Assembly (NCBI RefSeq): GCF_028583425.1
Contig: NC_072795.1
Span: 74,166,001-74,230,000, forward strand
Direction: 5' to 3'
Source of the DNA: Eublepharis macularius
Taxonomy: Eukaryota > Chordata > Lepidosauria > Squamata > Eublepharidae
Length of the DNA stretch: 64,000 nt
The notes under the pieces were generated by a model that was not told the origin of the DNA, ran no database searches, and worked only from the letters and a program-made list of their open reading frames with translations. This document shows, in pieces, positions 8,230-60,937 of this stretch. Position numbers and translations under genes: made by a program. Position 1 is the first letter of the stretch. Each line of letters begins with the position of its first letter.

Positions 8230-8360
8230 GCTCCCCCCCTCTCGCCCCAGCCAGCTCGCTCAACTTGTAACGCAGCCTCGGAGCGCGACCCTCGCCCAGG
8301 CCACTCCTGAGGAGCCGCCGAGGGTGGGCTAGGGGGGAGGCTGGCAGAGACAAAGCAAAG

Positions 8361-41757: not shown

Positions 41758-41939
41758 ATAGACTGCGCCAAACTGAGGAGGCTCTACTGAAGTGTGTCGA
41801 GACGCAGCAGAGTCAGTGGTGGATGTTGGCACCCAACGGCCGCAGTCCTTCGGAGGAGGATTTATTGGCTGTGTAAAGTGCCAGTGACCAGGAGGAGGAG
41901 GAGGCAAATGAGCTCCCTCAGGCCGTTGCAGCAGCAGGT

Positions 41940-42863
41940 ATGGCTCAGAGCACGGTTGTGTTGGTGGAGAAGCTAACCTCCGCAAATTACTCCACTTGGT
42001 CATTATGTGTGGAGCATTTTCTAAAAAGAGAGGGGCTGTGTAAATGTGTCAGCAATCCCCCTGCGGACCCCACTGATGCTGAAAAGAGTGCAGATGAGCG
42101 TGCTTTAGTTCATATCATGCTGGCTGTGGGGGGTGACCAATTGCTTCACATCAGGGACTCAGCTACGAGTTCAAAGGCCTGGGAAGATTTAAAGCTGGTC
42201 CATGCCAGAACATCTGCAGGGTCATTAATCATGCTGACACGTCGCCTCTACAGACTTGCTCTCAAGCTGGGGGAGAGCATGCAGAAACATATAAACAGTT
42301 TGACTGAATGTTTCCAGCAACTGTCTGCTCGTGGGAAACCCACGGAAGACTCAGATAAGGCATACATTCTGTTATCAAGTGTGCCTGATGTATATTTTCC
42401 TCTTATTGCAAGCCTTGAGAGCCTTGAACCGGATAAACTCACTTACTCATATGTTGGGTCCCGTCTTCTTGAGGAAGAAGCTCGTGTTTCAACATACGGG
42501 AGCTGGCATTCAAGGACGGAGCAGCGATCGGACGGAGGGGCCCATCGAGGGGTTTCTGCCACTGACGGCGGAGGAGTTACCAGCAAACAGCGAGAGATAA
42601 CCCAGCTGACAGCAGCAACCATAAGGAAATGTTACATTTGCGGCTCCACTTCTCACCTTCGTCGCTTTTGCCCGGACAGAAGAAAACAACAGAAGCAGAA
42701 GCAAGGACACGTGCAGGAGCCTCGAATTCAGGATGAACATGCAAGGCTGGTCACCGCTTCTACTGCAGACACACGCTTCCAATGGATTTTAGATAGCGGC
42801 GCCTCGGAATGTTTTGCCTGGTCAGAGGAGGTGCTGTGTAATTTACAACAGAGCAATCTGCAG
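41940..42863 (+). CDS. Copia Gag and protease start
   Basis: The ATG at 41940 begins a copia Gag (UBN2-like capsid: NYSTWSLCVEHFLKREGLC, then LTRRLYRLALKLGESMQKHI). A CCHC zinc knuckle CYICGSTSHLRRFC lies at residues 231-244 and the aspartic protease motif ILDSGASE at about 283-290, with catalytic Asp285. Gag packages the element RNA and the protease matures the polyprotein. The frame is cut by the hAT insertion at 42864; the apparent stop codon (42864-42866) is the first three bases of the hAT terminus. It continues at 45286. Confidence 0.93.
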
Positions 42864-42879
42864 TAGGGATGTGCATTTC

Positions 42880-43016: not shown

Positions 43017-43349
43017 TTCAATGGGAAAATGCCTCCGGCGTCTTCCCGGACGTCTGGGGGAGGCATCTTCCCACCGAATCAGCCCAAAATTGGTGGGGAC
43101 CTTCCTCTAACCCCTCTCTACAAACCCCCCCAAGTTTAAGTCCGATTGGACTTTGGGGGGCCATGTTATGGCCCCCCAAAGCAGGTCCCCCTATCCTCCC
43201 ATAAGAAAGCGAAGGAGCAGCATATTGTTAGCATGCTGCTGCTCATCTTCTTCATTATTTCCTATGGGGAAAAATGAAGAAGCAGGCTTCCTTTGCCAGG
43301 GGTGGCATTTTGCATGCAAAATGCCCCCTCACCCTCAAAAGCACAATTC

Positions 43350-44060
43350 CTGTCAAAAACACTTTATTTCTTGAACAGCTTTAGGTTACACAGCAGGGGG
43401 GGAACACCAAAGGGCATGGAAGCAGTATCTTACACAAAAATAACACAACTCACTTCACATTAAAGAATCACTCCAAAAAATTGCTGTCAAAAGCACTTTA
43501 TTTCTGTAACTGCTTTAGGTTACACAGTAGGAAGGCACAACAGAGCAGGAAAGCAGTGTACTACACAAAAATAACACAACTCACTTCACATCAGAGAATC
43601 ACACAAACACAATTGCTGTCAAAAACGGTGAAGTGGGTTGTATTATTTTTTGTAGTACATTGCTATCATGCCCTGTTGTGCCCTCCTACTGTGTAACCTA
43701 ATGCTGTTCAAGAAATAAAGTGTTTTTGCCAGGAATTGTGTTTTTGTGATTCTCTGATGTTAAATGAGTAGTGTTATTTTTGAGTAAGATAGTGCTGCCA
43801 TGCCCTTTGGTGTTCCCCCCTGCTGTGTAACCTAAAGCTGTTCAAGAAATAAAGTGTTTTTGCCAGGAATTGTGCTTTTGTGATTCTCTGATGTTAAGTG
43901 AGTTGTGTTACTTTTGTGTAAGATAGTGCTGCCATGCCCTTTGGTGTTCCCCCCTGCTGTGTAACCTAAAGCTGTTCAAGAAATAAAGTGTTTTTGACAG
44001 GAATCGTGCTTTGTGATTCTCTGATGTTAAGTGAGTTGTGTTATTTTTCTGTGTGGGGGA
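43350..44060. repeat. 134-bp tandem repeats with poly(A) signals on both strands
   Basis: A unit containing GTTCAAGAAATAAAGTG, then TGATTCTCTGATGTTAA and GCTGTGTAACCTAAAG occurs three times forward, with AATAAA at 43714, 43848 and 43982 (exactly 134 apart). It occurs twice inverted on the left, with TTTATT at 43363 and 43497 (again 134 apart). Each AATAAA is followed by a GTGTTTTT-type downstream element. Confidence 0.85.
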
Positions 44061-45285
44061 CTGCTGGTGTAATGTGTCATAATGCTTTGCCTACTTGTAC
44101 TTTGGAAAGGAGAAAATAATTTTTTAAAAACTTTATTTTTTGTTCTTGTTTTATTCTTTGTTGTGCAGTTGGTTCCCATCATAGGGAACAATGGGGCTGG
44201 CTGGCCAGCCATCTCTGTAGGTGGTGGGGGAATTTGAGGGAGGGTGTCTGTGGTTCAGGTGCTCTTTCACAGGGACCAGCTGGCACTCAGAAGTGTGCCC
44301 ACCATTGTGGTACCCCTGGGCTGTGCAGAATTGCCCAGGGAAAGAGAGTTTAGAAGTTCCCAGCATAGGGAACAAAGGGAGAGAGCTGGCCTTTGCCAGC
44401 CTGTTCCTGGGGTTATGGGTGTGGGGCAGGTGGGGGTGGATTTGGGTCTGTGAGGGGCTAATGTGGGGATTTGGGTCTGTGTGTGGCAGCTGGGGGGGAA
44501 TTGGGTTTGTGTGGGGCTGTAAGGGGTGGACTTTGGGGGCTGAGAGCACCTACTTGGGGAGGCCATGAAATGGCCCCCTCAAGTGGGAGCAATCTGAGCC
44601 TTGTTGGGGGTGGGAGGAAGGGTGGGAGAAGGGCCCCAGAGGGCTGGGGGGCATTTTGCATGCAAAATGCCACCCCTGGCAAGACAAGCCTCCCCCAGCT
44701 GTCAGTGGTAGAGAAAAGAGCATCTACTTGGGGAGGCCATGAAATGGCCCCCCAAGTGGGAGCAGGCTGAGCCTTGGTGGGGGTGGGAGGAGGGGTGGGA
44801 GAAGGGCTCCTGAGGGTAAGGGGGCATTTTGCATGCAAAATGCCACCCCTGGCAAAGGAAGCCTGCTTCTTCATTTTTCCCCATAGGAAATAATGAAGAA
44901 GATGAGCAGCAGCATGCTAACAATATGCTGCTCCTTCACTTTCTTATGGGAGGATAGGGGGACCTGTTTTGGGGGGCCATAACATGGCCCCCCAAAGTCC
45001 AATCGGTCTTAAACTTGGGGGGTTTGTAGAGAGGGGTTAGAGGAAGGTCCCCACCAATTTTGGGCTGATTCGGTGGGAAAATGCCTCCCCCAGACGTCCG
45101 GGAAGACGCCGGAGGCATTTTCCCATTGAAAAAGCCGAAAGCCGAAAGCCGAAAGTAAGCCCAAAGCCGAAAGCCGAAACGGCTGGCCGTTTCGGCTTTC
45201 GGCTTATATGAAAGAGAATCCTCTTTCGGCTTTCTGCTTTCGGCTTTAGCCGAAAATTTTTGGCTTGCACACCCCTAATCTGCAG

Positions 45286-45593
45286 TCCGTTTTGTTGGCA
45301 GACGGGAGAGAATCTTCAGTGAGTGCTATGGGAACTTTGTGGTTTACAGCTCTGGAGGAGGACTTTGCGCCTGTGTATTGAGTTCCCTCTTTGGACCATA
45401 ATCTGTTATCTGTAAGTAAGTTGGCCCAGAAGGGATTTGAGGTCCAGTTTATAGGGGACAAATGTCTAATAAGCAAAGCTGGCAAGGTTCTAGCAAATGG
45501 GGAGCTGAAAAACAATGTATATATTGTGGAAAATCGACAGGCAAAGGCCGACACGGTTACTAACAAATGTAGCCATGACAATTGTGTGCATTT
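45286..45593 (+). pseudogene. Copia polyprotein, protease to integrase linker
   Basis: It continues the frame after the hAT (SVLLADGRESSVSAMG) and contains the pre-integrase signature SLDHNLLSVSKLAQKGFEVQ (starting near 45388). An in-frame TGA at 45379-45381 is the only nonsense codon I see in the copia frame. The segment is cut after codons for NCVH by the retrovirus LTR and resumes at 58228. Confidence 0.85.
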
Positions 45594-46973
45594 TGTTGCC
45601 AAGTAGGCCCCCTCCCCTGCTTTGAAGCCTGCCATGAACTGTGCTAAAGTTTCCTGCGTTGCTGTTTCACTGCTACACCAAAGACTGCTTTGCACGTGTG
45701 TGTTCTGATACACGTGTCAGTTTCCTGCCTGCGTGTCAAGTACCTTGCTGCTATAGACTGTGTAGTTTACTGACTCCATGTTTGGTTAACTGCACAAAGG
45801 ACTCTCTTTCTGGGCAGCCCTGCCCTGACCTGTATCTGGAATTCCCAGTGTGTGTTTGGACTGTGTTCCCCGTGCCTGCTTTGCCATCTGCCACGGACCG
45901 TGCCTGTTCCCTGCTTTGGACTGTGTTTTAAAGTGTTGTTCCCGCTGCCTCCATGGAAGCCTGCCTCATATGGGCCCAAGCCGCTGCTAGCAGCCGGGCG
46001 CCTGCCGGGGAAGCCTCCAACGAGCCTGGCTAGGCGCTCCCTGGTCAGTTCCCGCCTGGAGCCTCCCGCGGGTCGGTCGCCGAGCTTGCCCTCGCTACCG
46101 GGCAGCCTGCTATCCAGCCCCAGCTATGCCCAGCCGGCATCCATGTTCTCAGGCACCCAGAAGACCCAGAGGAAGAGACTGCTTTGAGAAGCCATTTCGG
46201 CGAAGCGGGCACACCACGTCCGCAGCGAGAGCCCCTCGCCCCGCTCTGCATATCTTAGGAGCCGCCCCGGAGAAGAGCTAAGTGCTGACCATCCCAAGCA
46301 CTTAGAGAATGCATCTCAAAGAAACCTCCGCATTCCAGAAGCTGATGACATCAGGACAAGCCCTGTCCGCTGGAACATCCATTCAGCCCACTTGGATTTC
46401 CCCCTCCCTCTTTTGTCCCCTCTTCCTGAGGTGTCACTTATCGCAATCAGATTACCAAAGTGGCCCATCCAAGCCATTCAGTAGCCCATTAGACCCTTTG
46501 TTTTAATCTGTGAGAACCACCAAGTACAGCACCAGCCCCAGGGTACGTTTTGGGGTATTTAAGCTGGTCTCTCAGACCACTCGGTGCCTCGGCCATTCCT
46601 ATCCAGACTTCCTTGCTGTCCGTCTGTGGTCCCAGTGCTGGCATTGGGCCACCCTCGCTGCTGTGTCTCTGCTTCGCTCCAGGATAAGTGAGTATTTCCC
46701 CTATCATCGTTGGGAACCAGCTAATGCGAACGTCTCTGTATTTCCTACTCTGTATTTCTTAGACCTTGTGTGTTCCTTGTATGATTGTGCAAGCTAGGCT
46801 TACGCTACACTCAATACACGTGTTTGTACCTTACTCCTTGTCTGCCTCTTTTTCACTAGAGTGTCTGGGATCGGGACCTCCGTAAACATAGGTTATGATC
46901 CTCGCTTAATATTAATAGTTACAGACTGCTACAGCTAATTCCCCATTATAATAAAAGAGCAGTTCTGGTAACA
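45594..46973 (+). repeat. Retroviral 5' LTR
   Basis: It starts TGTTGCC and ends GGTAACA (imperfect inverted ends), 1380 bp. A TATTTAA at 46556-46562 is a plausible TATA box. The only AATAAA (46950-46955) is just 18 bases before the end, so R would reach almost to the LTR end and U5 would be very short. Confidence 0.93.
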
Positions 46974-46979
46974 GTTTAC

Positions 46980-47003
46980 TGGTGGAGAATGCGGGCATAA
47001 CCC
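46980..47003 (+). promoter_or_regulatory. Probable retroviral primer binding site
   Basis: TGGTGGAGAATGCGGGCATA begins six bases after the LTR. TGG is complementary to the CCA end that all tRNAs carry. I could not match the following bases to a specific tRNA. Confidence 0.5.
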
Positions 47004-48412
47004 AGTTCGTGTGAATCCACGTGAGTCGACACGCGTGTCTTCAGCGAACTGACTTAGAGGAAAATTTTCCAGACCTCTGTGTAAAAAGCGCAATTTAGCT
47101 CAGGGAATTAAAAGTGTGAGTGTGTGTGGCTCTAGCGAGCATTTCTATCTTGTGGGTTGGCTTTTCCCCCATTTCCTCCTTCAGCCAGCTTTGGACTACT
47201 TGCCTTTTGTGGTGCACCGCGAGGCCCTCCAGCCGTTATAACCGGTGTACTGTGGGTGAGGACCTCTGAACTGGTGAAGTTCCTGGCCACCTTCCGGGCC
47301 GCCTAAACGCGTCTATGTGGGTGGGATCCCAGAAGTAGGCTCTCTCTATATATATATACATCCTGAGGCAGCACATATAAAACTCTTTTCCGCCCTCCCC
47401 CGTCTCTCCTAAGTCCGTCCAAACCCCGTTCCTGCCAGCACTTAGGCTTCAATCCCCACTCCGGAGGAAACGTGAAGGGATCGTTAGTCCGTTCGTTCAG
47501 TTTAGCTTTGGGAATCTGAAGCCAGGTTCCTGAAGCACCGCGGCAGCCGGCCGCACCGTGCTTAAGAGTTTTAAGGTAGACTCTTGGGCACCTTTCCGCT
47601 TGCGAGTTTTAAGTCAGACTCGTGGGCGCACCTCGCTTGGGAGTCAGTGGGACTCTTGGGCGCACCCTGCTTGGGAGTTGTTTGAACTCTTGAGCGCTTT
47701 TTCCGCTTGGGAGTACCGTAGTTTTACTCCTGGGCACTTTTGCTTGGGGACTTGCAGAGGCAGTCCTTGAGCACATTTAGTCTTTTGGTCTTGGCTTGGA
47801 GACAGTTTAACCGTTTGTCTCTGAGCACGAGGCCTGGGGACACTTTTGAGTACAGTTCTTGGGCAGAGAGCTTGGGAGCATTTGCAGTTTCTGAGCAGAG
47901 GCTTGGGAGCATTTCTGGTTGCCTGAGCAGAGGCTTGGGAGACCCCTTTAGTAGCAGTTCCTGAGCAGAGGCTTGGGGACACCTTTTGGTTTCCGAGTAT
48001 AGGCTTGGGAGACCCCTGAGCTTTAGCTTCTGAGCAGAGGCTTGGAAGCGCTGAGCGTCTTTTGGTTCTTGGGCTTAGAGAGCTTGAGAGCACCCTCTGA
48101 GCCAGTAAGCTTTTCCTGGTCCCGTGGCTTGTAGGCAAGCTTGAAACGGGAATAGGAATTTTCCTTCTCCCCCGGTGGAGGAGAACCGAGTGTAGAACCC
48201 TTAAAAATACCCTTGTGAACCTAAAAGTAGAACCTTAAAACCCCCTGGTAAAAACCCTTGAGGACCTGAGGGAAGGATAAACCTCCCAAAAGGAACATAG
48301 ATAGGAAGAAGTTGTTAAAACCCTTGAGCAGCTTTAATCGCCCCACCCCTGGTGTCGCTGATCCACTCTTTAACCTCCCCCGAGATCAGCCTTAAACTAA
48401 AAAGAAAAAAAA
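47004..48412 (+). other. Long retroviral leader with degenerate tandem repeats
   Basis: There are 1.4 kb between the PBS and gag. From about 47560 to 48110 a motif GCTTGGGAG, alternating with CTTGGGCGCA or CTGAGCAGAG, recurs ten or more times at 30-45-base spacing. There is no conserved coding frame. Candidate functions are packaging, dimerisation or internal ribosome entry; all are inference. Confidence 0.7.
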
Positions 48413-50191
48413 ATGTACCGGGCAGCCCCCACCGTGCCCCGCCTGGAGAAGTGGCTAGTTAAGAAGGGAGATTGCCCCTGGGAAGCCGGTTCCTTCAAGG
48501 GACCCGACCCACTCCAGATAGTTAGAAGCGCCTTCCAGGACTTTTGTGACAAGGAGAAACCTAGGTCTAGCAAAAAGGACAGATATGGAGCCTGGGCACT
48601 TTTCACCGCCCTGCAGGACAGCGTGTCCCTAATTAGCAAGTTGCAAACAGCACAGGAGGAGTTAGAGGAGAGGTCAAAACGAGAGCAGGACGCCTTGCGC
48701 CTAGAAATCCAGACTCTCAGGACCAAGCTAACCGACCAGGAGAGAGAACATGAGGAGAAAGCAGTTGAGTGGCGCGCCAAACGCGTCAATTTCATATTAG
48801 AGAAGCAAGGACTAACTACCGCCCTCCAGGACGCTCAGCACAAGGCTGAAGCGGCCACCGCTCGTGCCGATATGGCTGAGCACGCATTAACGGAGGGACA
48901 AGAAGAGATTACTAAGCTCACCCATGCCGCCCGGTTCATGGCGGACCACAACCAGTCTAAAACCGCAGCCGCGGACCATTCAGCTTGTAAGAGGGAGCTA
49001 GAGGCCCTAAAGCGACACTTGGGGATGCAACAGGCCGTAATTTCCGCCGTGCACCCCTCAGCCCTCTTGGCCCTCCCAGAAGATAGTAAGGATAGCTGGG
49101 CATCTCAGTCGCCCCAGCCCGAGGAAGCCCCACAGCCCCTCCATCCAATAGCTACTAAGGAAATTGTATCCATGGACGAGGATGGCAGGAAAACAGACCG
49201 GGTCGTTAAGGAAACCCGCAATTGGAGGCCCGATGAGCTCCAAGCCATAGCGGACCGCATGGGACCCCTGAACCGGGACTCGGCTATACAATGGTTTGCA
49301 CACGTGACCATGTCCCAGCCCTCCGCCAGTGGCTCCGATGTAGCTCAGCTGGCTCGCCATTGTGCCAGCCCCGAAATAGTCACCTCTCTTAATGCATACA
49401 TTTCTAACCGGAGACTAGCCACTCGCAGTCAGTATGGTGCCATGAAAGAGTTGTGCGCATTTCTGTGGCCCACCAAGAGTTTAAAAGCCCTGTATATTGC
49501 AGAGTCTCAAAAACCCGGAGAGGATCCAGAGGCATATTTAGCCAGGAAACAGCTCCTAGCCGAACTAGCAGACGAGGTAGACTTAGACTTGAGCGACATG
49601 CCTGACTTCGATGACTTAGAGTTTAGGAGAGCAGTCATAGATGGGCTCAACAGCACCACTCGCCTAGCCCTAGCAGGAGTAGAGCCCGGGAGCATTACAT
49701 GGGGAGAGCTGGAATCCCACATCAGGAGCATTGCTGGCCTGTTGCGAGAGACCGGAGCCATCCGTCATGTGAAGTCCCCGGCCTCCCATAGGAAAGAGAG
49801 TGAGCCCATCAACACAGTCATGTATGCCAACCATGGTCCCCACTCCCAATATCGGCCCCAAGGGCATAGCTCGTACTCGGAGCCTAGAGGTGGCATCTTG
49901 CGTGGGAGAAGTGGTAGCTTCACTCGGGGCCGCAGCCAGAGGGACTCCCGTCCAGGAGTAACCTTTGTGCCCACCCCCAGTCGCTACCCTTCCTCCCCAC
50001 AGGGACCCTCTGAGCCCTGGAGACCTGCGCTGCCCTCGGCACCCCCGCCCCCTCGGGCACCTCACCCCTACAATCACCAGGTCTACCCTCCCCCAAGTCA
50101 GGCTGACTCCTGGAGACCGCAGCCAAAGGACCACGAGGAGCCCTCTGACCTAGGAGAGCCGCCACCAGCTGGGAACCCCTTTTTCCAATAG
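48413..50191 (+). CDS. Retroviral Gag, 592 codons, coiled coil plus GR-rich tail
   Basis: ATG 48413 to TAG 50189-50191, uninterrupted. Gag builds the virus core. Residues about 70-210 form a long charged coiled coil (LISKLQTAQEELEERSKREQ). Residues about 260-470 look like a capsid domain with a major-homology-like segment ESQKPGEDPEAYLARKQLL near 364-382. Residues about 492-515 hold a GR-rich box (RGRSGSFTRGRSQRD), then a Pro-rich tail ending PAGNPFFQ. There is no CCHC zinc knuckle. Coiled-coil N-terminus plus GR box recalls foamy virus Gag, whereas the stop before the next frame recalls gammaretroviruses. Called Gag from position and capsid features; not a match to a specific virus. Confidence 0.75.
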   Translation: MYRAAPTVPRLEKWLVKKGDCPWEAGSFKGPDPLQIVRSAFQDFCDKEKPRSSKKDRYGAWALFTALQDSVSLISKLQTAQEELEERSKREQDALRLEIQTLRTKLTDQEREHEEKAVEWRAKRVNFILEKQGLTTALQDAQHKAEAATARADMAEHALTEGQEEITKLTHAARFMADHNQSKTAAADHSACKRELEALKRHLGMQQAVISAVHPSALLALPEDSKDSWASQSPQPEEAPQPLHPIATKEIVSMDEDGRKTDRVVKETRNWRPDELQAIADRMGPLNRDSAIQWFAHVTMSQPSASGSDVAQLARHCASPEIVTSLNAYISNRRLATRSQYGAMKELCAFLWPTKSLKALYIAESQKPGEDPEAYLARKQLLAELADEVDLDLSDMPDFDDLEFRRAVIDGLNSTTRLALAGVEPGSITWGELESHIRSIAGLLRETGAIRHVKSPASHRKESEPINTVMYANHGPHSQYRPQGHSSYSEPRGGILRGRSGSFTRGRSQRDSRPGVTFVPTPSRYPSSPQGPSEPWRPALPSAPPPPRAPHPYNHQVYPPPSQADSWRPQPKDHEEPSDLGEPPPAGNPFFQ

Positions 50192-51289
50192 GGATGCCCG
50201 GGGGTCACACGTGCTTCTCCCCACTTAACTGCCCGTGGGAGAAAACCAAAGGTTGAGGCTAGCCTTCGACCTCCGGGAACTAAAAATAGCTTGGAACTTA
50301 AAAGAGAGAAGGAAAGATTCCAAAGGGTGATTCGCACCCAGAACCCAGCACCAACTTTGCCAGACACCTCTGAAAGAAATCTGGCAGAGCTGCAAAATAA
50401 AATTCAGGAACTCATAAGTGTAAACAGGGAACAGAATTTAAAAATAAATGATCTTAATAAAGAGAATGAGGAATTAAAAGAAAAATTAAATGCTTGCACA
50501 ATAGAGAAAGAGCAGCTCCACAGTAAATTCCTTAGCATGCAGACTTGGCTGGAGAACCAGAATAATGAAACCGCCACTTTAAAAACCCTGATGCAAAATC
50601 TCCTGGAATCCCAGAGACTCACTGAGGCCAGATTAAAGACTTTAGAGGAACAATCAGTGATTGAATCAGCACCCCGCCCCGCCAAAGGCAGTGAAACAGG
50701 TAGCCAGTCACCTTTGCCTCCAATTTCTGCCTCAGCCCCCACGCCCAAGAAGCCAGAATTCACTTTAGCCTCTGAGCATGTGCAGAGTTTAAAAGTCATT
50801 CCCCAAGAAATTGTCTTGGCTCCCATAGACTGCCCCCAGCCAAGCTATACACAGCCCACCGTGACTGTGCCCTCTTGCAATGACCCTGAAAACCAAACAG
50901 ACAAAAGTAAAAATGCAGTTCCTTTAAAAGATTTAAAATGCTTTGAGAATCCAGTGCTTGCAACTACACACCAAATAGCTTTCTCTCAGCCTTCCCTGAC
51001 TAACACCCCTGAAGAAAACCTTATGTTGTGCCTGTGTGGTTTAGTAGTGCTTGAGCTAATTCAGAGACATTTGTGTATCTGTTTCCACGTTTTAAAAGGC
51101 TCAAGCCCAAAACTTAATGAAAAGGTAGAGCCTCCAGCAGTAAGTGCAGTCAGGAATGTAATAATGCAAGTGAGCAAACTCCAGAAAGACTCCCAGTTGC
51201 TAGCAGCATCTAAAACAGACTATTCCCACTCAGCGTTGCACCCCCACCCCTCATTGAAATGGAAAAAACTGGCCAGACCAGGATTCTGA
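50192..51289 (+). CDS. In-frame coiled-coil ORF in the pol position, after gag UAG
   Basis: The gag frame stays open directly after the UAG for 365 codons, ending at TGA 51287-51289. It has no ATG of its own near the start (the first is at about 50539), so readthrough of CAA-UAG-GGA or splicing would be needed to make it. After a basic lead (GCPGVTRASPHLTARGRKPK) comes a strong coiled coil (LQNKIQELISVNREQNLKIN, then KENEELKEKLNACTIEKEQL), a Ser/Pro/Thr-rich middle and a Leu/Cys hydrophobic patch (NLMLCLCGLVVLELIQRHLC). Nothing resembles protease, RT or integrase. Function unknown; a Gag-like assembly partner or captured host segment are possibilities. Confidence 0.65.
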   Translation, partial: GCPGVTRASPHLTARGRKPKVEASLRPPGTKNSLELKREKERFQRVIRTQNPAPTLPDTSERNLAELQNKIQELISVNREQNLKINDLNKENEELKEKLNACTIEKEQLHSKFLSMQTWLENQNNETATLKTLMQNLLESQRLTEARLKTLEEQSVIESAPRPAKGSETGSQSPLPPISASAPTPKKPEFTLASEHVQSLKVIPQEIVLAPIDCPQPSYTQPTVTVPSCNDPENQTDKSKNAVPLKDLKCFENPVLATTHQIAFSQPSLTNTPEENLMLCLCGLVVLELIQRHLCICFHVLKGSSPKLNEKVEPPAVSAVRNVIMQVSKLQKDSQLLAASKTDYSHSALHPHPSLKWKKLARPGF

Positions 51290-53103
51290 CCTCCTCCCAG
51301 TTCTTCCTTTTGTCCTCTCCCAGGCTGAAGTAAGCCTAAATAAATGTAATCACTGGTTCCCTGTCCGAATTTGGAAGGGATTGGAACCAGGAGTGGAAAA
51401 GCCACCTTAAGGAGACTTGAGTTCAAGTCCCCGCAGCCCCCGTCCCTTTTTGTTGTGCAGTCTTAACTTTATGTGTGTGTGAACCTGAAGCCCAATTCCC
51501 TTTTGAAATTAGATGTAAAAAGCCAACTTGGCTTCATATAATCATTTAGTGTTTTTGTTATTTCTTTTCAGTTCTATTCTTTAACTTCATTAGGCGGGCC
51601 CCACAGTTGGGACCCTGAGTATAGGGGGAACACGGCAACCAAGGCCAAATAGGACCACCACCGAAAGTGATTCTTAATTGGATTTTAAGCCGCATGTTCG
51701 GAAAAAAAATTTTGCACAGGCAAAAGAGAGTTGCCTTGTGGTAAGTTTTGGAGAGGCTTTAGCCCAAAGGTGATTTCCAATACCGTAGATCCACCAAATA
51801 AGGTGATCCCGGTATTCGAAAATATATCACCCGCCGTGCTGGTGAAGATCCCGCATCTACGTAGATTCGGGGTCTCACCTGCCAGACCCACGCTTTCGCA
51901 TGATGGTCGGCTTTGGCTTTGAGGGCCGTGCCTCCCCTGGAAAAGGTCCCCCAGATAACCCAATACCCCTCTTTTACTAATGTTCATATTCGTCATGGTG
52001 AGTTGCTATACGGCGCCACCAGTTAGTACGCTTTAGTGCAAATGTAAAAGACCCGCCAGTATTTTGTAAATATGTGCCCTCTGGAATGTGTTATTGAGGT
52101 GCGTTCGCCACGCACAAGGGGCAGCGTGCCTCATTTACATAGCCAGGATCCCCTGCGCCAAGATGACCCCCGAATAACCCAGACCCAGTGGCGCCGGCAG
52201 ATCTCGGCCGCCTCTGCCGCTTTTCGATAAACGCTGCCGAGCGCCTTCGGCCCCATTTCGGCCCTTTCCGCAAGCAGCCGCCCGCCCCACGTAATCTTTT
52301 CCCTTGCCCGTACCGTACAAGGGAAAAGAAGGGGGGGAGACATATTGAAGATATAATGAAGCCCTGCCAGGCACCCCAAGTAAGGGCACCCGAAAGTACC
52401 CTACACCCGTATGCCTCTTGCTCCGTGTATTTTTCTTTTTGCTCAGTGCATTTTTCTTTTGCTCAGTGTATTTTTCTTTTTGCCCGGTGTACCTTTTTTT
52501 TGAAACCAGAAGATGGGGCCTCCCGAGGGAGTCCCTCCAAAAATTGCTAGTCCTGCAAACATATGACGAAAGCCCATTTTTAGGAAATTAAAGCGAGGGC
52601 CCCCGTCTGCAGCAATCCTTATAGTTGCTGGATACCGCTCTCTAGTTTTTCTTCCTTTTAAAACGGCAAGGCCAGGCCGAGCCGGACCGACAGCTCTCAG
52701 CCCGCAAAATGAAAATAGCCCGCCGCCGAGCAAGGGGCACCTGAAGGCCACATAGCCCAGGCACCCAGGGACCCCTGGGGCGAGTTTGCATAATCCCGCC
52801 TAACGCACAGCCGACCCTCGCTCGACGTAAAAACGTTTCCCCTCTGAAATATACATGCTTTAGGAAGAAGCCCCCGCACAGGAGTCCCCCAGAGCAACAA
52901 GCTGGAAGGCTCGCTTAGTGCTCTGGGACTTCTCATTCGAGCCCCACCTAATAGACAGTGCTGGCAGAAAAACGCCCTCTCTTTTCTTTTTCCCTGCTCC
53001 ACTTTATTTTATTTTCGCTGCAACAAACTCAGGGAACCTGTACTTATATCCGCAGGTCTCCCCAGGATATTTTCACTACAGAAAGGAAAAGGAAGGCCAG
53101 GAG
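51290..53103 (+). other. Non-coding retroviral stretch between ORFX and env
   Basis: There are 1.8 kb with stops in all frames and no RT or integrase remnants that I can see. At 52420-52495 a unit of about 24 bases (GTGTATTTTTCTTTTTGCTC) recurs three times. A possible env splice acceptor (TTTTCACTACAG) lies just upstream of the env ATG. Confidence 0.6.
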
Positions 53104-55490
53104 ATGAGGCACCTGGCTACTCTGTGTTTGCTCGTGCTGGCAGGCACCCTAATAGAGGGACGCCCGTCCAAATTAATGCCCTACCCCCACTGGAGATGCA
53201 TTAATACCCTAGCAAGGAGTGAAATGATGGTCTGCAAAGTTGTACAGCAGAGCAATATGACCACCCCCACGGATCGCACAAACTTCCGCAGCTGTGAAGA
53301 GCAGTGGATCCGACCCCCCGAGCTTGTTATTTTATGTGTAGGAGTAAAAACTATGTCCCAAGAGCTAGTATGCTACTCGTCTACTGACACAGTGTCACCT
53401 CTTGCTCCAATTCCATGTATGTTTCTTCCCCGTATCAGGCCAGCCCCCACCGCAGTCCCAGTGGTAGACAAATATACCACCCCTACCAATTTCGAAACCT
53501 CGCCATTTGTTACTGAGGCTTTCGGACCATACTGTGAAGTTATTTTAGTGTCGGCCGCAGTATGGAAGGCAGGAGACCCCTTTAGAATGACCATCCTACT
53601 AGGCACCACTACCACTGAGTCTGCATCAGTCACTATCACGCCCCCTTCAGGCACGGCTCTCTCCTTTGCTATAGAACGCTGGGAGAACCTGACCTGGATT
53701 GTAAAAGAGGAAGATCTAGCCAAACATGGCCCACCCGATTGGATTCTGGTTCAACAGACGCCCGAATGCCAAACCAAGCCCCTTGTAGAGAAATTTCACC
53801 GGCTTGGGCTGCTCTTTGTAAATTTGACTCACGAACCAGGCAATTATTCCCTGCTGATCCGGACCCAGGAGACCCACACCATCCAAATTGACCCTTTGAT
53901 TGCTAGCAATGAACAATTAAGCCAAGGCGGCACACATATAGTGGGCTCCCATGTTTTGAAAACTGACATTCGAGAGAGAGTTCTAGTCCGCCCGCAAATG
54001 TCTTTAAAAGAGATCCGCATAGACTTAGCTGAACTAAATATAACCCAGAGGCTGCCGCAGTGCGCTCCCTATCTGGAGGCCGGTAGCAAGGGTTGGAATG
54101 CATGGCTACAACTGTGGATCGATCCCTCTCCTTCTCTCTCGCATGCCAGACGAAGCATTGCCGACTGGACTGCTCCTGCAGCCGGAGGCTTAGCAATCAT
54201 GGATTCGGTCAATATTGAGACTCTCGCTAATAAGTTTGCCCATGTCACGACTAGCATCTCCGACTTAGGTAAACCAGTGGTGCAGTCCCTAAATTCCATT
54301 TCAAATGGGCAACACGAGATCAGCTCCATTTTAGTTAACTGGGAGAGTCAAATTGAAAGAGATTTTTCTCTGCTGCTCAAAGGAACACAGTCTTTGGAAC
54401 GCAACATGTCAATAGCCATGGCATGTATGCAAGCCCAACAATTAAATCAGGCTGTGGCCTGGGACTAATTCGGCAAGCCACGGATGGGCACTTGCCCCTG
54501 GAAATTAAAAGATTGATTATACCCAAATTGTCACCCATAGAACTGGAGCTTGAATCCTGGTGGTCTCTCGTAAATTCCTCATTCTCACCAACCACCCAGG
54601 AGCTTAAATTATTTTTATTAACGGCCAGTGCGCACGAGTCATTCCATGTGTATCCAGTCGTGCCTCTGGGACTCCAAGTCAGCGACACCGAGGTCCTCTA
54701 CGCCCGCCACCCCGACCATTGGGCCCGCTTCACCCCGACCGGATGGCAGCTCGTCAGCCTCCAAGGGTGCCAGCATCGAGACCAGACCGGCTTCATTTGC
54801 CAGGACCAAGCCTTTGCACCTCATCACCCCTGTGTAGCCCCGCAAGTCGACGCCCTCAACGAATGCCCTTTCGAGGTCGTCCAGGAGAACAGCTCCGCTG
54901 TGGTCTACCTTGGGAAAGGATGTGCCTGCGTGCGAACGGCCTGCGACTTTGTGATCCTGAACTCGTTCCAGCTTAAGCCCGTGATCCCGGGAGTCAACCG
55001 CTGCTTCTGCAACCTGTCTTCGGTGGCAGCCTGCGACTTCACCTACACGGTACCGGTCTGGACCCAAGAAGAGATCCTGGTGGCGACCTCCATCTATCGT
55101 TATGTGAAGCCTGTCGCCCTTGGCATCGGTCTGGAATTAATCCACGAGCTCCTGGCCCACCCGCAGCTCCACCGCACCCTCCAAAGCATCCAGAGGGACG
55201 GGGACACCACTGCTTTGGTTGTGTCCCACAACGGAAAGGAGATTTTGGATCTGGTCCAGCGGATTAAGACCACCGGCGAGCACTCGTGGTGGGAGACCCT
55301 CTTTGGTTGGAGCCCCACTGCCACTGGAATTTACAATTTGGCTCTGCACCCGATCGTTGTGATTTTGGCTTTTCAAGTTCTACTATGTGCCTCACTGCTT
55401 TATTTGGGCTGTTGGAGCCGCCGACAGCTCCAGCAACTCCAGCTGTCCTACCGTTTGGATCATTACAACCCCGACCTCCTCTTGCCCTAA
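53104..55490 (+). pseudogene. Retroviral Env with one frame break
   Basis: ATG 53104 starts a signal peptide (MRHLATLCLLVLAG). A surface-like region with several N-glycosylation sites (NMT, NLT, NYS, NIT) follows. A dibasic RR near codon 350 (SHARRSIADW) precedes a possible fusion-peptide region. This frame ends at TAA 54466-54468. The remaining Env is in another frame (54423-55490), with Cys-rich segments (CACVRTACDF, CFCNLSSVAACDF), a GWSPTATG motif near the membrane, one hydrophobic segment (PIVVILAFQVLLCASLLYL) and a short tail. The two frames overlap by 46 bases and each is clean elsewhere, so a single small indel near 54423-54468 is the likely cause. Env mediates entry; this copy would not make a full one as read. 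Confidence 0.82.
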
Positions 55491-56843
55491 AGGTTATTCT
55501 TGGCGCCCTCCTTTAACCCTTGTTTGTTTTATTGCTTGTGCCGGTATGGACTATGATTATGTTTATTATTATGTGTATGAATCCTGCACCGGCCCCATGG
55601 ACGCTCTGCTGCCGGACACCGCTCCGAGGCCCTCTTGTGGACTAGGGGGGGACATGTTTCTCTGCCTCCCAGCCCACGGCCCGTCTCCAAACGACCGCCA
55701 GCAGCGCCACCTCCATGAGGACTAGAACTGTGTGCCTGGAGCCCTTCTCGCCGCCTGCCGACCCTGCTCTGCGGATTGACGCAGACAGCAAGGGGGGTGG
55801 AAGTGTGTTTTGGAGCACATGGACTAAGTTTGCTTGTTCTTGTATATATGTAACCCAGTCCAGCAGCTGTACTGCAGACTGAGCCGTCTGTGATCTTTGT
55901 TGCTCTATTGTTTTATGAATTTCTTCTCATTGCTTTCATGAATTTTAACTCCCATGAATTTAGCCCCGAACTAGTCCCTCTCTCTATCTATTGCAAGTGC
56001 GCCCATGAACTTTATCCCTATGAATTTGATTTTAACCTTGAATTGCCTTCTTAACCCGACTCCCTCCGCCGAGGCAGTTCTAGTCTATGAATTTGATTTT
56101 AATCCAGCCATATTGATTTGGTCTTTTAATTGCAGAGTTTATTTTTCTGCCCCCATGAGCCCTTCCGCCGCCTACCCCTCATGAATTGTTTCCACGCACT
56201 TGCTTTTATTCTTGCTGCTTTTGACTTCATGAACTATTGCTTTTAATCACATATATGTATTTATGATTTTAGCCATGTATGAATTACTCTACCCTTGATG
56301 AATTATGCCATGCTTGCACATTTCACTTTACCCTGTATGAATTGCTTTTAATTGTCCCTGCTTTTAATTCTATGTATCTACTTATGATTTTAACTATCCA
56401 TGAATTGATCCATGTATATTAATTGCTCCTGGTTTTTAGTGCTTTTAACCCATCATGAATTCCGTATGAATTACCCTCATCCATGAATTAATCAATGTAC
56501 ACAATTATGAATTATTGCTATTTATATGCATGAATTGGTCATTGCTGCCTATTACTATGAATTACTATTGCTATGAATTATTACTATTTATTCTGACGGT
56601 TGCACTTAGCACACCCCCTGGTGTGAACCCAGAGACCTGCAGCCCATTGGCTGATCGAAATTGCACTTATTCGGTTAGGTGGTTCTCCAAACTAAATTTT
56701 TTTGAGTGACGCCTCCTCCCCCTTCCCTTCCCACTCCTTCTGCGCTCGAAGCTCGACCACCGGACATTGCCGACCACCTCGCCTTTGAAGACAAGTTCGG
56801 AGACCCACGTGCCTGACGTCACATGGTCTCCGAGGGGGGGAAT
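55491..56843 (+). other. Retroviral 3' region with ATGAATT array
   Basis: There is no convincing gene after env. Between about 55914 and 56580 the heptamer ATGAATT occurs 17 times by my count, plus variants (ATGAACT). The segment ends in a GC-rich piece and the polypurine tract. Confidence 0.75.
56832..56842 (+). promoter_or_regulatory. Polypurine tract
   Basis: GAGGGGGGGAA lies one base before the 3' LTR TGTTGCC, where plus-strand DNA synthesis would be primed. Its position confirms the LTR start. Confidence 0.85.
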
Positions 56844-58223
56844 TGTTGCCAAGTAGGCCCCCTCCCCTGCTTTGAAGCCTGCCATGAACTGTGCTAAAGT
56901 TTCCTGCGTTGCTGTTTCACTGCTACACCAAAGACTGCTTTGCACGTGTGTGTTCTGATACACGTGTCAGTTTCCTGCCTGCGTGTCAAGTACCTTGCTG
57001 CTATAGACTGTGTAGTTTACTGACTCCATGTTTGGTTAACTGCACAAAGGACTCTCTTTCTGGGCAGCCCTGCCCTGACCTGTATCTGGAATTCCCAGTG
57101 TGTGTTTGGACTGTGTTCCCCGTGCCTGCTTTGCCATCTGCCACGGACCGTGCCTGTTCCTTGCCTTGTACTGTGTTTTAAAGTGTTGTTCCCGCTGCCT
57201 CCATGGAAGCCTGCCTCATATGGGCCCAAGCCGCTGCTAGCAGCCGGGCGCCTGCCGGGGAAGCCTCCAACGAGCCTGGCTAGGCGCTCCCTGGTCAGTT
57301 CCCGCCTGGAGCCTCCCGCGGGTCGGTCGCCGAGCTTGCCCTCGCTACCGGGCAGCCTGCTATCCAGCCCCAGCTATGCCCAGCCGGCATCCATGTTCTC
57401 AGGCACCCAGAAGACCCAGAGGAAGAGACTGCTTTGAGAAGCCATTTCGGCGAAGCGGGCACACCACGTCCGCAGCGAGAGCCCCTCGCCCCGCTCTGCA
57501 TATCTTAGGAGCCGCCCCGGAGAAGAGCTAAGTGCTGACCATCCCAAGCACTTAGAGAATGCATCTCAAAGAAACCTCCGCATTCCAGAAGCTGATGACA
57601 TCAGGACAAGCCCTGTCCGCTGGAACATCCATTCAGCCCACTTGGATTTCCCCCTCCCTCTTTTGTCCCCTCTTCCTGAGGTGTCACTTATCGCAATCAG
57701 ATTACCAAAGTGGCCCATCCAAGCCATTCAGTAGCCCATTAGACCCTTTGTTTTAATCTGTGAGAACCACCAAGTACAGCACCAGCCCCAGGGTACGTTT
57801 TGGGGTATTTAAGCTGGTCTCTCAGACCACTCGGTGCCTCGGCCATTCCTATCCAGACTTCCTTGCTGTCCGTCTGTGGTCCCAGTGCTGGCATTGGGCC
57901 ACCCTCGCTGCTGTGTCTCTGCTTCGCTCCAGGATAAGTGAGTATTTCCCCTATCATCGTTGGGAACCAGCTAATGCGAACGTCTCTGTATTTCCTACTC
58001 TGTATTTCTTAGACCTTGTGTGTTCCTTGTATGATTGTGCAAGCTAGGCTTACGCTACACTCAATACACGTGTTTGTACCTTACTCCTTGTCTGCCTCTT
58101 TTTCACTAGAGTGTCTGGGATCGGGACCTCCGTAAACATAGGTTATGATCCTCGCTTAATATTAATAGTTACAGACTGCTACAGCTAATTCCCCATTATA
58201 ATAAAAGAGCAGTTCTGGTAACA
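56844..58223 (+). repeat. Retroviral 3' LTR
   Basis: 1380 bp, identical in length to the 5' LTR. By eye it differs only at the positions matching 45911 (C/T), 45915 (T/C) and 45919 (G/T). Confidence 0.93.
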
Positions 58224-58227
58224 GTTT

Positions 58228-60937
58228 ATTGCACCGGCGCTTAGGGCATGCTAGCTTTGGGGTTATACGCAAATCTCTAACACTCCTGAAGGGAGAAAAG
58301 GTGTCAAGCTGCTCAGAGTTCCTAGCCTGCACTGTTTGTAAAGCAGTCAAAACAAAGGCATTCCCTGTAGCTAAGAAAAGTGGTCGGGTGTCTACAAAAC
58401 CATTCGAGTTGATCCACATGGATCTGATTGGTCTGTTCCCCAAAAGCCATTCTCAAAATTGTTATGCCCTGGTCCTAACAGACGATTTTAGCCGGTACTC
58501 ATGGATTTATGTTATGAAACACAAGTCTCAAACTTTTGATTTGTTTAAGGTTTGGGCAAAAAAGGTACAAAAACAGTTGGTGCTGGAGATTAAGGCCATC
58601 CAGTCTGACCAAGGGGGAGAGTTCATGTCTGTAAATTTCTCTCGCTGGTGTGATCTAAATGGTGTCTTGCACAGGGTAGCGACTACAAGTGTGCCGCAAG
58701 AGAATGGTCTGGCAGAAAGGCATGGTGCCATTATACAAGAAAAAATGGCTGCTATGTTAACTGATGCCGGTTTGCCAAAAACTTACTGGGCTGAGGCAAT
58801 TATCTGTGCCTGTTATGTGGTAAATCGTCTGTGGTCCCGTGCTGTGAATGAAATACCTTTTAGGTTACTTTTCAAAAGGGATCCTAATCTAAGTTTACTA
58901 AGGCTGTTTGGCATGAATTCTTGGGTGCACATCCCTTTAAGGCAGTGCAGAAAAGGGGGCCCAAAAGCCTCTAAGTTGATATTCGTTGGATACCAGAGTG
59001 GCATGAAGGCCTACAGGTTTGCCAATGAAAACAAAAAGATATCATATAGCCGATCAGCCAGTGTATGTGAACATGGGAATTGGAGAAGGCTTCACGGGTA
59101 TGAGAGTGAAAGCCAGATTGCATTGCCAGTTACCGAAGAAGTGCCTGAAATAAGTCCAGAGGGAAACGTGAGTGTGAAGCAGGAGATTAGTTTTCCAGCC
59201 AGGCAGGTAACACAGGACACACAGAGGTCTAGTCCTCCAATACACGTGTCCAGTCGGTCAAATAAGGGTGTCCCACCTCAAAGGTTTGGTTTTGAAGCTG
59301 CAGCAAACTGTGGACTAGTTAAAGAGCCAGCTAGCTATTCAGAACTTCTCACTTATGAGGGGGAAGAGAAAAAGGCTTGGCTCGAGGCCATGAAACCCGA
59401 GTATCAGTCTCTAACTGACCATGAAGTTTTTACAGTTGTACCTAAGCCAAAAGACGCCAATATAATTGGCTGTAGGTGGCTGTATAAGATAAAACAACTT
59501 CCCTCAGGAGATATGCAGAGGAAAGCGCGTTTGGTAGCCCGTGGTTTTTCTCAGGTACAATTCCAAGATTATGACCAGGTATTTTCTCCCACCGTTAGGC
59601 CTGAAACAGTAAAGTTAGCCTTATGCAAGGCAGGGGTGCAACACAAAAACATAGATCATTTTGACGTCTGTACGGCTTACCTCCATGCTCCTTTACAGGA
59701 ATGTTTATACATGGAGCAAATACCAGGATTTGAGGTGTCAAATAAACATATGGTGCTCAAATTAAACCGGGCTTTGTATGGGTTACGTCAATCAGCACGA
59801 GCTTGGTTTCAATACCTATCACAATCACGAAAAACAGCAGGCTTTGAGCAAGGCAAAGGTGATGCCTGCATTTTTACAAAAATGGTAGGAGGTTCAGAAG
59901 TCCAACTCCTTATTTTTGTAGATGATATATTGTATATATACGAGACAGACGAACAATTATGCTGGTTTAAACAAATAGCAAAGGATATTTGCAAGGTGAA
60001 ACATTTGGGTCCTATCTCTAACTATTTGGGAGTGCAAGTGTCAAAAACCCAGGACAGATTTTACCAACTGAATCAGAGGGATAAAATTGTAAAGTTGCTC
60101 ACAGAGTATAAATTAACTGGAGTACATGGTGTGTCTACTCCTATGACGACAGGGTATATCAAAGAGCCAGATGACATTCCCTTGGAAGATGTACAGAGAT
60201 ATCAGTCGTTGGTGGGCAGTCTTTTGTATCTCTCATGTTGGGGCCGTCCAGATATAACACAAGCAGTAAACATGCTATGTAAAAGGTGTGCTAAGCCTTT
60301 CTGTAGGGATTGGATAGCAGCAAGACGCGTATTAAGATATCTTAAGGCTACTCTTAATTTCTCTTTGGTTCTGAAAGTTACTGAACCTATGCAAGTCACT
60401 ATGTTTTGTGATGCTAGCTGGGCAGACCGCCCTGACGGAAAATCAACCACAGGACTAGTTATTTTTGTTGGAGGTGCTCTCATTGCACATAAGACATCAA
60501 AGCAATCTTTGTTAGCTCCTTCATCTTGTGAAGCTGAGTTCGCAGCCATAAGCCAAGGTATTTTAGAGCTGGAAGTAATACAACAGCTCATGTCTGACAT
60601 GAAAATGCATTGTGCTGTACCTGTTGATGTTTATGGGGATAATACAGCAGCACAGCATTTAGCCCAAGATGGTGGGGCTAAATCACGAAGTAAACACATC
60701 CTAATCAGGTATTTAAATGTAAAATGTGCTGTAGAACAAGGTTTCATAAAATTGTTAAGATGTACATCTGGTGACAATATAGCAGACATGTTTACTAAAA
60801 GTCTGTATACTGTACAATTCGAACGATTACGTGATGCTTTAAACTGCTCTCATACTGGCTTGGAGGAGTGTTGTAATCTAAATGTCAAAAGCCAGTGTGC
60901 AGAGGCTCTAGATCAAAATGATCTGTGTGACAGTTAA
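58228..60937 (+). CDS. Copia Pol: integrase, reverse transcriptase, RNase H
   Basis: The frame resumes after the retrovirus at LHRRLGHASFG and is open for about 900 codons. Integrase zinc domain: His2, His7, Cys34, Cys37. Its catalytic triad is Asp65 (HMDLIG), Asp127 (SDQGGEF) and Glu163, spaced DD35E. The GAG-pre-integrase text lies upstream at 45388. Reverse transcriptase starts near KAWLEAMKPEYQSL and contains GCRWLYKIKQ, LYGLRQSARAW and the active site FVDD (563-566). RNase H has FCDASWADRPDG (Asp728) and SKHILIRYLN near the end. The last 23 codons (from 60869) are read from the 3' LTR. No stop is visible within it. Confidence 0.95.

What the first reader, a model, noticed from the sequence alone, without database searches (positions are those of the whole stretch)
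45594..58223. A very young provirus that lacks pol and carries a coiled-coil frame in its place
Seen: two full LTRs with three differences, intact gag frame, env with one break, PBS-like site and polypurine tract, and no protease, RT, RNase H or integrase motif in 9.9 kb of internal sequence. Inference: the lineage copies itself with enzymes from another retrovirus while supplying its own Gag and possibly Env. Non-autonomous retroelements usually keep few genes. One that keeps Gag and Env and loses only pol, with a new frame in the gap, is unusual and may be undescribed.
Basis: partly seen in the sequence, partly recalled or inferred. Interest (0 to 1): 0.9.

Follow-up and report, generated by a model that had tools for sequence, protein, structure and literature searches.

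The report
Young retrovirus copy missing its polymerase
A recently inserted retrovirus copy in what looks like a reptile genome has kept its shell gene (gag) and most of its coat gene (env) but carries unrelated DNA where its copying-enzyme gene should be, so it was probably copied by another virus's enzymes; partial parallels are already known.

Summary
A provirus at 45594-58223 has two 1,380-bp LTRs with three differences, all within 9 bp. It has an 18/18 tRNA-Ala-type primer site, a polypurine tract, an intact Gag frame, and an Env frame with one break. It sits in a copia element; joining the flanks with a 4-bp duplication (3 of 4 bases match) gives back a copia-like reading frame. No protease, RT, RNase H or integrase profile matches any sense-strand piece scanned. 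After Gag's amber stop comes a 365-codon frame, partly coiled coil, in Gag's own frame, largely inside a compositionally foreign stretch (about 50278-51828).

Gag resembles avian Ovex1: similar major homology region, N-terminal coil, no zinc knuckle.

Best reading: a helper-dependent endogenous retrovirus whose pol was replaced before this integration by unrelated sequence, and which was copied in trans. Similar swaps (koala recKoRV, bovine D-type ERVK) and pol-less Gag+Env elements (grouse TERV, plant Athila) are known. New here are the apparent family, the nearly complete Env and the in-frame replacement. Whether this is a multi-copy lineage stays open: the own-genome search did not complete on any of 15 tries.

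The parts
45594..46973 (+). 5' LTR, 1,380 bp, TG...CA, no TATAWA or TATATA box, single AATAAA at 46950
46980..46997 (+). primer binding site, 18/18 to a tRNA-Ala 3' end, 6 nt beyond the LTR's CA
   Evidence: tRNA ends recalled; random maximum 14/18 in 40 trials
46998..48412 (+). long leader before gag with imperfect tandem repeats (47821-48049)
48413..50191 (+). intact Gag frame (592 aa): no G2, N-terminal heptad region, MHR at 49508, PSAP at 50033, no Cys-His knuckle, amber stop 50189-50191
   Evidence: no Pfam family
50192..51289 (+). 365-codon frame in Gag's frame directly after the amber stop, heptad region at residues 84-125, no relative found
50278..51828 (.). AT-rich segment (GC 0.433; 0.572 before, 0.524 after): likely foreign replacement, ends approximate
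   Evidence: gains 15.3 and 18.3; maxima of 60 plain shuffles 7.3 and 7.4; plain shuffles ignore local composition drift
51735..51960 (+). strongly folding RNA stretch (z -4.0, 0 of 200 shuffles fold as well), function unknown
51290..53103 (.). region before Env; no pol remnant found, no 3-base periodicity over 51290-52863
53104..55490 (+). Env: signal-peptide-like start at 53104, dibasic site ending 54153 (no full RX[RK]R), heptad region after it, frame break within 54357-54468, membrane anchor near the C-terminus, short tail; 9 N-glycosylation motifs in the two frames as scanned (six in the frame from 52864, three in 54468-55487), no CX6CC, no CXXC
   Evidence: no Pfam family
56832..56842 (+). 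polypurine tract one base before the 3' LTR
56844..58223 (+). 3' LTR
45590..45593 (.). left copy of the 4-bp target duplication (ATTT; right copy GTTT at 58224-58227)
   Evidence: joining host flanks with k=4 leaves about 70 open, copia-like codons before the junction; k=3, 5, 6 leave about 28 or fewer

Best explanation
A recently integrated, helper-dependent endogenous retrovirus, probably of the Ovex1 / snakehead-retrovirus (epsilon-like) type. In its ancestor, recombination replaced nearly all of pro-pol by unrelated sequence holding a 365-codon frame joined in phase behind the Gag amber codon; Gag and Env were kept. Its RNA carries its own PBS, PPT and LTRs and was reverse transcribed and integrated by a Pol supplied in trans, probably packaged in particles that contained another retrovirus's Gag-Pol. 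Shown: retroviral ends, clean 4-bp integration into a copia gene, no recognisable pol, intact Gag, broken Env, compositionally foreign centre. Inferred: trans-mobilisation, the ancestry, and that the loss predates this integration. Not shown: that Gag, the new frame or Env is made, or that other copies exist.
For: Near-identical LTRs with the differences in one patch. Empty-site join that continues the copia frame with a 4-bp duplication. PBS 18/18. No pol profile in any sense piece scanned, with working controls for RT and integrase. Composition break points on both sides of most of the coiled-coil frame and a significantly open frame, while 51290-52863 shows no 3-base periodicity (p=0.78); so the gap holds foreign or non-coding DNA, which neither a simple recent deletion nor an intact pol would leave. 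Gag MHR fits QX3EX4(hydrophobic)X2R (consensus from PMC8278194) and scores 52 against Ovex1's printed MHR, 10 of 20 identical, maximum of 3,000 shuffles 40. N-terminal coil, no zinc knuckle, amber stop with an in-phase continuation, and an Env without CX6CC fit the description of Ovex1. Centre-swapped ERVs thought to be mobilised in trans are reported.
Against: No second copy could be sought, so a single dead-on-arrival recombinant is not excluded. The MHR regular expression alone turns up in 215 of 5,000 shuffled Gags; the Ovex1 link rests mainly on one 20-residue motif. Against it: Ovex1's Env is described without a signal peptide and with RX(R/K)R-type sites, whereas here there is a signal-like start and only a dibasic ARR; Ovex1's ORF3 is itself an uncertain Env. 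A 4-bp duplication is listed for class I, no zinc finger for classes III and IV, so the class is mixed. No homolog of Gag, the frame or Env was found, in databases that probably hold few vertebrate sequences. Thirds of the new frame tested apart have weak periodicity (p 0.09, 0.03, 0.17). The capsid model is useless (pLDDT 40.5). The Env break shows that this copy does not make full-length Env. The target duplication has one mismatch in four.
Confidence: 0.6

Rival explanations
1. One-off defective copy: a normal, pol-bearing retrovirus lost pol and picked up other RNA by template switching in the very cycle that made this provirus; there is no pol-less lineage.
For: The LTRs are nearly identical, so one cycle suffices; no second copy is known; retroviral capture of host mRNA usually deletes viral coding sequence (PMC4299795 section 15).
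Against: A single recent switch should leave intact, recognisable pol flanks unless it removed pol almost exactly; about 1.3 kb before Env (51828-53103) has no pol match and most of it (to 52863) lies in a stretch without 3-base periodicity, which suggests an older, multi-step history.
Confidence: 0.25
2. Host gene capture: the 365-codon frame is a transduced cellular coding sequence (gag-X-env, as in defective transforming retroviruses), kept for its own effect. This can be true together with the best explanation.
For: Foreign composition; open frame in phase behind Gag; weak best Pfam hits to coiled-coil cell proteins (TPR-like E 0.0046, below cut-off); reptile ERVs have captured KIT ligand and nectin3.
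Against: No PDB chain matches at E<=0.1; coiled-coil hits are non-specific; the last third of the frame looks less like protein (by eye); coding periodicity is weaker than in Gag and the 3' Env frame.
Confidence: 0.3
3. The centre is an old pol of the same virus decayed beyond recognition in a long-lived non-autonomous lineage.
For: 51290-52863 has no coding periodicity and no profile match; neutral decay is expected if pol comes in trans; pieces under 35 aa were not scanned.
Against: The first 365 codons are open, in frame, and match no pol domain; composition differs from both sides. Decay does not create a long open frame.
Confidence: 0.1
4. Loss after integration or assembly error: a full provirus was altered in place or collapsed in the assembly.
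For: Not excluded by any read data, none being available; the three clustered LTR differences could be a conversion or phasing patch.
Against: Would need deletion of pol and insertion of about 1.5 kb in phase with Gag while the LTRs stayed identical elsewhere; flanks and both LTRs are orderly.
Confidence: 0.07

Closest known systems
Ovex1 (chicken, zebra finch) and its relatives SpeV and CrocERV37-39; snakehead retrovirus SnRV
   Same: Ovex1 Gag: coil, not myristoylated, an MHR of the same pattern, no zinc finger; amber Gag stop followed by a long frame in the same phase; large ORF3 lacking CX6CC with a short tail (PMC2717909; relatives from PMC4299795)
   Different: Ovex1 has pro-pol after the amber codon; no U3/U5 repeats or PBS were found in it; its ORF3 lacks a signal peptide and has RX(R/K)R-type sites. 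Here an unrelated frame follows the stop, with intact LTRs, a tRNA-Ala PBS, a signal-like Env start and only a dibasic site. SnRV has a zinc finger.
TERV, tetraonine endogenous retrovirus of ruffed grouse
   Same: Vertebrate ERV with LTRs, Gag-like protein and Env part but devoid of Pol (as described in PMC2717909; original not read)
   Different: Assigned to alpharetroviruses on LTR and Gag, Env truncated to a TM piece; here Env is nearly whole
recKoRV (koala) and bovine ERVK[2-1-LTR] D-type
   Same: Centre swapped for unrelated, older retroelement sequence, LTRs and outer gag and env parts kept, thought to be mobilised by a competent relative (PMC5696478; PMC10924933)
   Different: Those keep only parts of gag and env without intact ORFs; here Gag is whole and the replacement has a long frame in phase with Gag
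Non-autonomous Athila families (Arabidopsis)
   Same: Gag and Env ORFs kept without pol, inferred to spread in trans, ORFs under purifying selection (PMC2410132)
   Different: Plant elements (Ty3 type by recall); no replacement frame mentioned in the passages read; here selection could not be tested
Defective transforming retroviruses (gag-onc-env; recalled)
   Same: Non-viral frame replaces pol, helper needed
   Different: Those usually fuse gag to the captured gene without a stop (recalled); here the Gag stop is kept and the origin of the frame is unknown

Membership tests
Retroviral provirus | Paired LTRs TG...CA with PBS and PPT | tested here: met
Retroviral provirus | Short target-site duplication | tested here: met
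   4 bp, 3 of 4 identical; of k=3-6 only k=4 continues a copia-like frame (judged by eye)
Retroviral provirus | gag with capsid MHR, and env | tested here: met
   motif and topology only, no Pfam match
Retroviral provirus | pro-pol gene | tested here: not met
   controls 25, 86 (RT and integrase only). This copy is a pol-less derivative.
Ovex1/SnRV-like lineage | RT phylogeny | not testable with these tools
   no RT in the element
Ovex1/SnRV-like lineage | Gag: coil, MHR close to Ovex1, no zinc finger | tested here: met
   MHR score 52 against maximum 40 of 3,000 shuffles; heptad pattern as strong in 0 of 300 shuffles; no C..C....H....C
[quoted passage not shown]
   amber codon and in-phase open frame present, but the frame is not Pol; no unusually stable downstream RNA fold, z +1.37 (pseudoknots not modelled)
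Ovex1/SnRV-like lineage | Env as in Ovex1 (no signal peptide, RX(R/K)R-type site, no CX6CC) | tested here: inconclusive
   no CX6CC as in Ovex1, but a signal-like start and no RX(R/K)R
Centre-swapped, trans-mobilised ERV (recKoRV / D-type) | Foreign centre between kept gag and env parts | tested here: met
   composition breaks; no pol; origin of the centre not identified
Centre-swapped, trans-mobilised ERV (recKoRV / D-type) | Several copies with the same junctions and a competent relative in the genome | not tested
   The genome search unanswered in all 15 calls
Athila-type pol-less gag+env family | Intact gag and env under purifying selection across copies | not tested
   one copy only; its env is broken

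The most novel reading that the evidence does not exclude
A vertebrate satellite retrovirus: a multi-copy lineage that makes its own Gag and Env particles, has traded Pol for a new coiled-coil domain made as a Gag extension by amber read-through, and uses the polymerase and integrase of another retrovirus that it co-packages with.
Probability: 0.13. Interest if true: 0.85.

Novelty: new variant of a known kind. Interest (0 to 1): 0.52.

Why it matters
A large survey of recent germline invasions (2,004 vertebrate genomes, PMC10435555, passages) kept elements with identical LTRs and an RT match, so an element without pol is invisible to it (this one also by its three LTR differences). A young pol-less provirus with whole Gag and nearly whole Env suggests that helper-dependent retroviruses may be under-counted in vertebrates. 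If copies exist, one can ask which retrovirus lends its enzymes and whether structural genes are kept by selection, as reported for Athila.

Tried and rejected
Tried without result: Pfam on Gag, the new frame and Env frames; homolog searches for Gag, the new frame and the 3' Env frame (none at E<=1e-3; for Gag only the 7,997 candidates sharing most words were scored); loci in viral contigs for Gag, both Env frames and the new frame and in genome contigs for Gag: none. These collections probably hold few vertebrate sequences, so the misses say little. PDB sequence searches for Gag, the Env frames and the new frame: nothing credible. Structure of the capsid region from a single sequence: pLDDT 40.5, not used and no fold search made. 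24 leader and 3' pieces and two LTR frames: one hit, ArAE_2_N at E 0.24, taken as chance.

Considered and rejected: a second, nested LTR ending near 51352 with a tRNA-Glu primer site at 51354. Its 13/18 match is reached or passed in 30 of 100 random sequences of that length. A stable RNA fold behind the Gag stop as a read-through signal: z +1.37. Similarity of the new frame to Gag or to the nearby L1-like ORF1: none. IN_DBD_C at E 0.033: none of the 29 sense pieces gave it, so it lies in one of 45 antisense pieces and is taken as chance. PR and RNase H motifs printed in PMC2717909: best scores in the gap 20 and 22, below the maxima of 30 shuffles, 27 and 28. The same motif test also failed on the copia flank, so it is weak.

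Dropped from counts: pieces under 35 aa and under 45 aa, and frames of 350 aa or more, which were scanned separately.
Full report
What is there. The provirus runs from 45594 to 58223. The two LTRs are 1,380 bp, begin TGTTGCC and end GGTAACA. They differ at 45911, 45915 and 45919 only; three random differences fall that close together with probability about 1e-4, so they are best read as one event (inference: a small conversion from another copy, a multi-base mutation or an assembly patch). A primer site starts at 46980, 6 nt beyond the LTR's CA, and matches a recalled tRNA-Ala 3' end at 18 of 18 positions. The best score in 40 random sequences of the same length was 14. A G-rich purine tract ends one base before the 3' LTR. 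The only AATAAA in the LTR is at 46950, and no TATAWA or TATATA box was found.

Integration. The provirus lies in a Ty1/copia element: copia gag at 41877-42866 and pol from 58205, with RVT_2 at 7.9e-55, rve and a gag_pre-integrs match (4.5e-05, just under its cut-off). When the host flanks are joined with one copy of a k-base duplication removed, k=4 leaves about 70 open codons before the junction, copia-like by eye (...CVHLLHRRLGH...); k=3, 5 and 6 leave about 28 or fewer. Even with k=4 there are stops further upstream in the left flank. The two 4-base copies match at 3 of 4 positions (ATTT, GTTT). A 4-bp duplication is the value listed for class I ERVs, 5 or 6 bp for the others (table in PMC4299795). 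This was therefore an ordinary retroviral integration, into a copia gene.

Gag. The frame 48401-50191 is intact (ATG 48413, 592 aa). It has no glycine at position 2, a strong heptad pattern in its N-terminal part (0 of 300 shuffles), no Cys-His knuckle, and a PSAP motif at 50033 (PSAP appears in 181 of 5,000 shuffled sequences, so it is weak by itself). QKPGEDPEAYLAR at residue 366 fits the MHR pattern given in PMC8278194 (passages), which 215 of 5,000 shuffles also contain. Aligned without gaps to the MHR printed for Ovex1, it has 10 of 20 identities and a score of 52. The maximum of 3,000 shuffles is 40, and the best of the other five frames of the window scores 36. Ovex1's Gag is described with the same set: coil, MHR, no zinc finger, not myristoylated, amber stop, next frame in phase (PMC2717909). 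Pfam shows nothing. Absence of a zinc finger is listed for classes III and IV and a 4-bp duplication for class I, so the class is mixed.

Env. A signal-peptide-like start at 53104 is followed by a 350-residue part ending in a dibasic site at 54153, a heptad-rich stretch (p=0.003), a frame break within 54357-54468, and a strongly hydrophobic anchor near the C-terminus with a short tail. There is no RX(R/K)R, CX6CC or CXXC. Ovex1's third ORF is likewise large, anchored near its end and without CX6CC, but it is described without a signal peptide and with RX(R/K)R-type sites, and its authors call its identity as Env uncertain. As it stands this copy cannot make full-length Env. With no Pfam match and no PDB match, Env is identified by position and topology only.

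Missing pol. Six-frame pieces of 50150-53103 (51 of 51 scanned, 35 aa or more) show no protease, RT, RNase H or integrase family at E<=1. Pieces of 45 aa or more from the rest of the interior (74) gave one integrase-related hit, IN_DBD_C at E 0.033. Scanning all 29 sense pieces singly did not give it again, so it is in one of the 45 antisense pieces and at chance level. The same method on nearby elements, some in several pieces, found RVT_1 in 3 of 22 pieces plus copia and L1-type domains, and RVT_2 and rve in the copia pol. No protease or RNase H hit came from those elements (at best Pol_BBD at E 0.018), so the controls bear on RT and integrase. A pol decayed to pieces too short or too changed to see is a minor rival.

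What stands in its place. Directly behind the amber codon the same frame stays open for 365 codons. None of 3,000 order-3 Markov sequences built from that segment is free of stops (minimum 6, mean 21), and the other two frames hold 33 and 30 stops. Codon-position bias is significant over the whole frame but weaker (p=1.5e-3) than in Gag (5.8e-8) or the 3' Env frame (5.2e-11); its thirds taken apart give p 0.09, 0.03 and 0.17. A coiled coil at residues 84-125 has modest support (p=0.023, region chosen by eye). Base composition changes at about 50278 (0.572 to 0.497; gain 15.3, maximum of 60 plain shuffles 7.3) and 51828 (0.433 to 0.524; gain 18.3, maximum 7.4) (plain shuffles ignore local drift). 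So the frame lies mostly in a foreign-looking stretch of about 1.5 kb that begins some 87 bp after the Gag stop. Its source is unknown: no relative in protein, viral or PDB searches, no similarity to Gag or to a nearby L1-like ORF1. A host coding sequence or a piece of another retroelement are both possible. From 51290 to 52863 there is no 3-base periodicity (p=0.78), but 51735-51960 folds far better than its shuffles (z -4.0, 0 of 200).

How it most likely works. Shown: signals for reverse transcription and integration are present, the copy integrated cleanly and recently, and no pol was found. It follows that Pol came from elsewhere, unless pol was lost in that very cycle. Inferred: the RNA was packaged with another retrovirus's Gag-Pol, perhaps in mixed particles, as assumed for the bovine C/D pair and cited there for ETn/MusD and recKoRV/KoRV (PMC10924933 section 20). 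The absence of any pol flank and the stretch without coding signal before Env argue for a history of more than one step, hence for a lineage over a single accident. Read-through of the Gag stop into the new frame is possible by analogy with Ovex1, SnRV and gammaretroviruses, but no stable downstream fold was found (pseudoknots not modelled).

What is known. Pol-less elements with Gag and Env: Athila families, with selection on the ORFs (PMC2410132, passages and Discussion read), and TERV (as described in PMC2717909, sections 10, 11, 14 and passages read; PMC10820513, passages, says that TERV was fully sequenced). Centre swaps: recKoRV (PMC5696478, passages) and bovine D-type (PMC10924933, passages and section 20). 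Gene capture by reptile ERVs: KIT ligand and nectin3 (PMC4299795, passages and section 15). The searches listed no vertebrate lineage that by title or start of abstract has whole Gag, nearly whole Env and an in-phase replacement frame. These are seven term searches of an open-access library, several with capped lists (20 of 51, 20 of 186, 20 of 705, 12 of 52), and do not show that none exists. Passages of two more papers (PMC10536682; PMC12992720) held nothing on the point.

Host. The window holds a DUSP5-like catalytic exon (best PDB match 2g6z, E 1.1e-51). The retroelement neighbours (copia, L1-like, a BovB-type RTE by recall) suggest a squamate; this is a recalled impression, not a test.

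Limits. One copy, no relatives, and no access to the rest of the genome: the genome search did not answer any of 15 identical requests. Lineage status, selection and helper identity are open.

Noticed in passing
51735-51960: Strongly folding, many-armed RNA stretch (z -4.0; 0 of 200 shuffles) between the new frame and env, straddling the right composition break; might be an export or packaging element or a foreign hairpin. The one Rfam match at E<=1 in 51290-52863 (NsiR4, 16.9 bits, cut-off 40) is chance.
   Followed up: partly
45911-45919 and 57161-57169: All three LTR differences sit in one 9-bp patch, so the LTR pair is otherwise identical; it may be a conversion from another copy, which would mean that related LTRs exist.
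   Followed up: partly
46974-46979 and 58224-58228: The first five bases after both LTRs are GTTTA although one is viral and the other host; the PBS lies 6 nt beyond CA, which is wide by recall. The single mismatch in the target duplication could be a viral base left at the junction.
   Followed up: no
46950-46973: The only AATAAA of the LTR is about 20 nt before its end, leaving almost no room for U5 if it is the working signal.
   Followed up: no
47821-48049: Imperfect tandem repeats in the 1.4-kb leader upstream of gag.
   Followed up: no
51323, 51460, 51571, 51741, 51998: Good-looking splice acceptors (first three) and donors (last two) by simple consensus scores cluster after the new frame; they could serve env splicing or be remains of a captured gene.
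   Followed up: no
43345-44855: Tandem repeats with periods 131, 134, 30 and 173 lie between the copia gag and the left flank of the provirus; whether they were inserted into the copia element was not tested.
   Followed up: no
8271-19488: Catalytic exon of a DUSP5-like gene at 19021-19488, about 26 kb upstream of the provirus; a first exon at 8271 is assigned by recall only (no Pfam match).
   Followed up: partly
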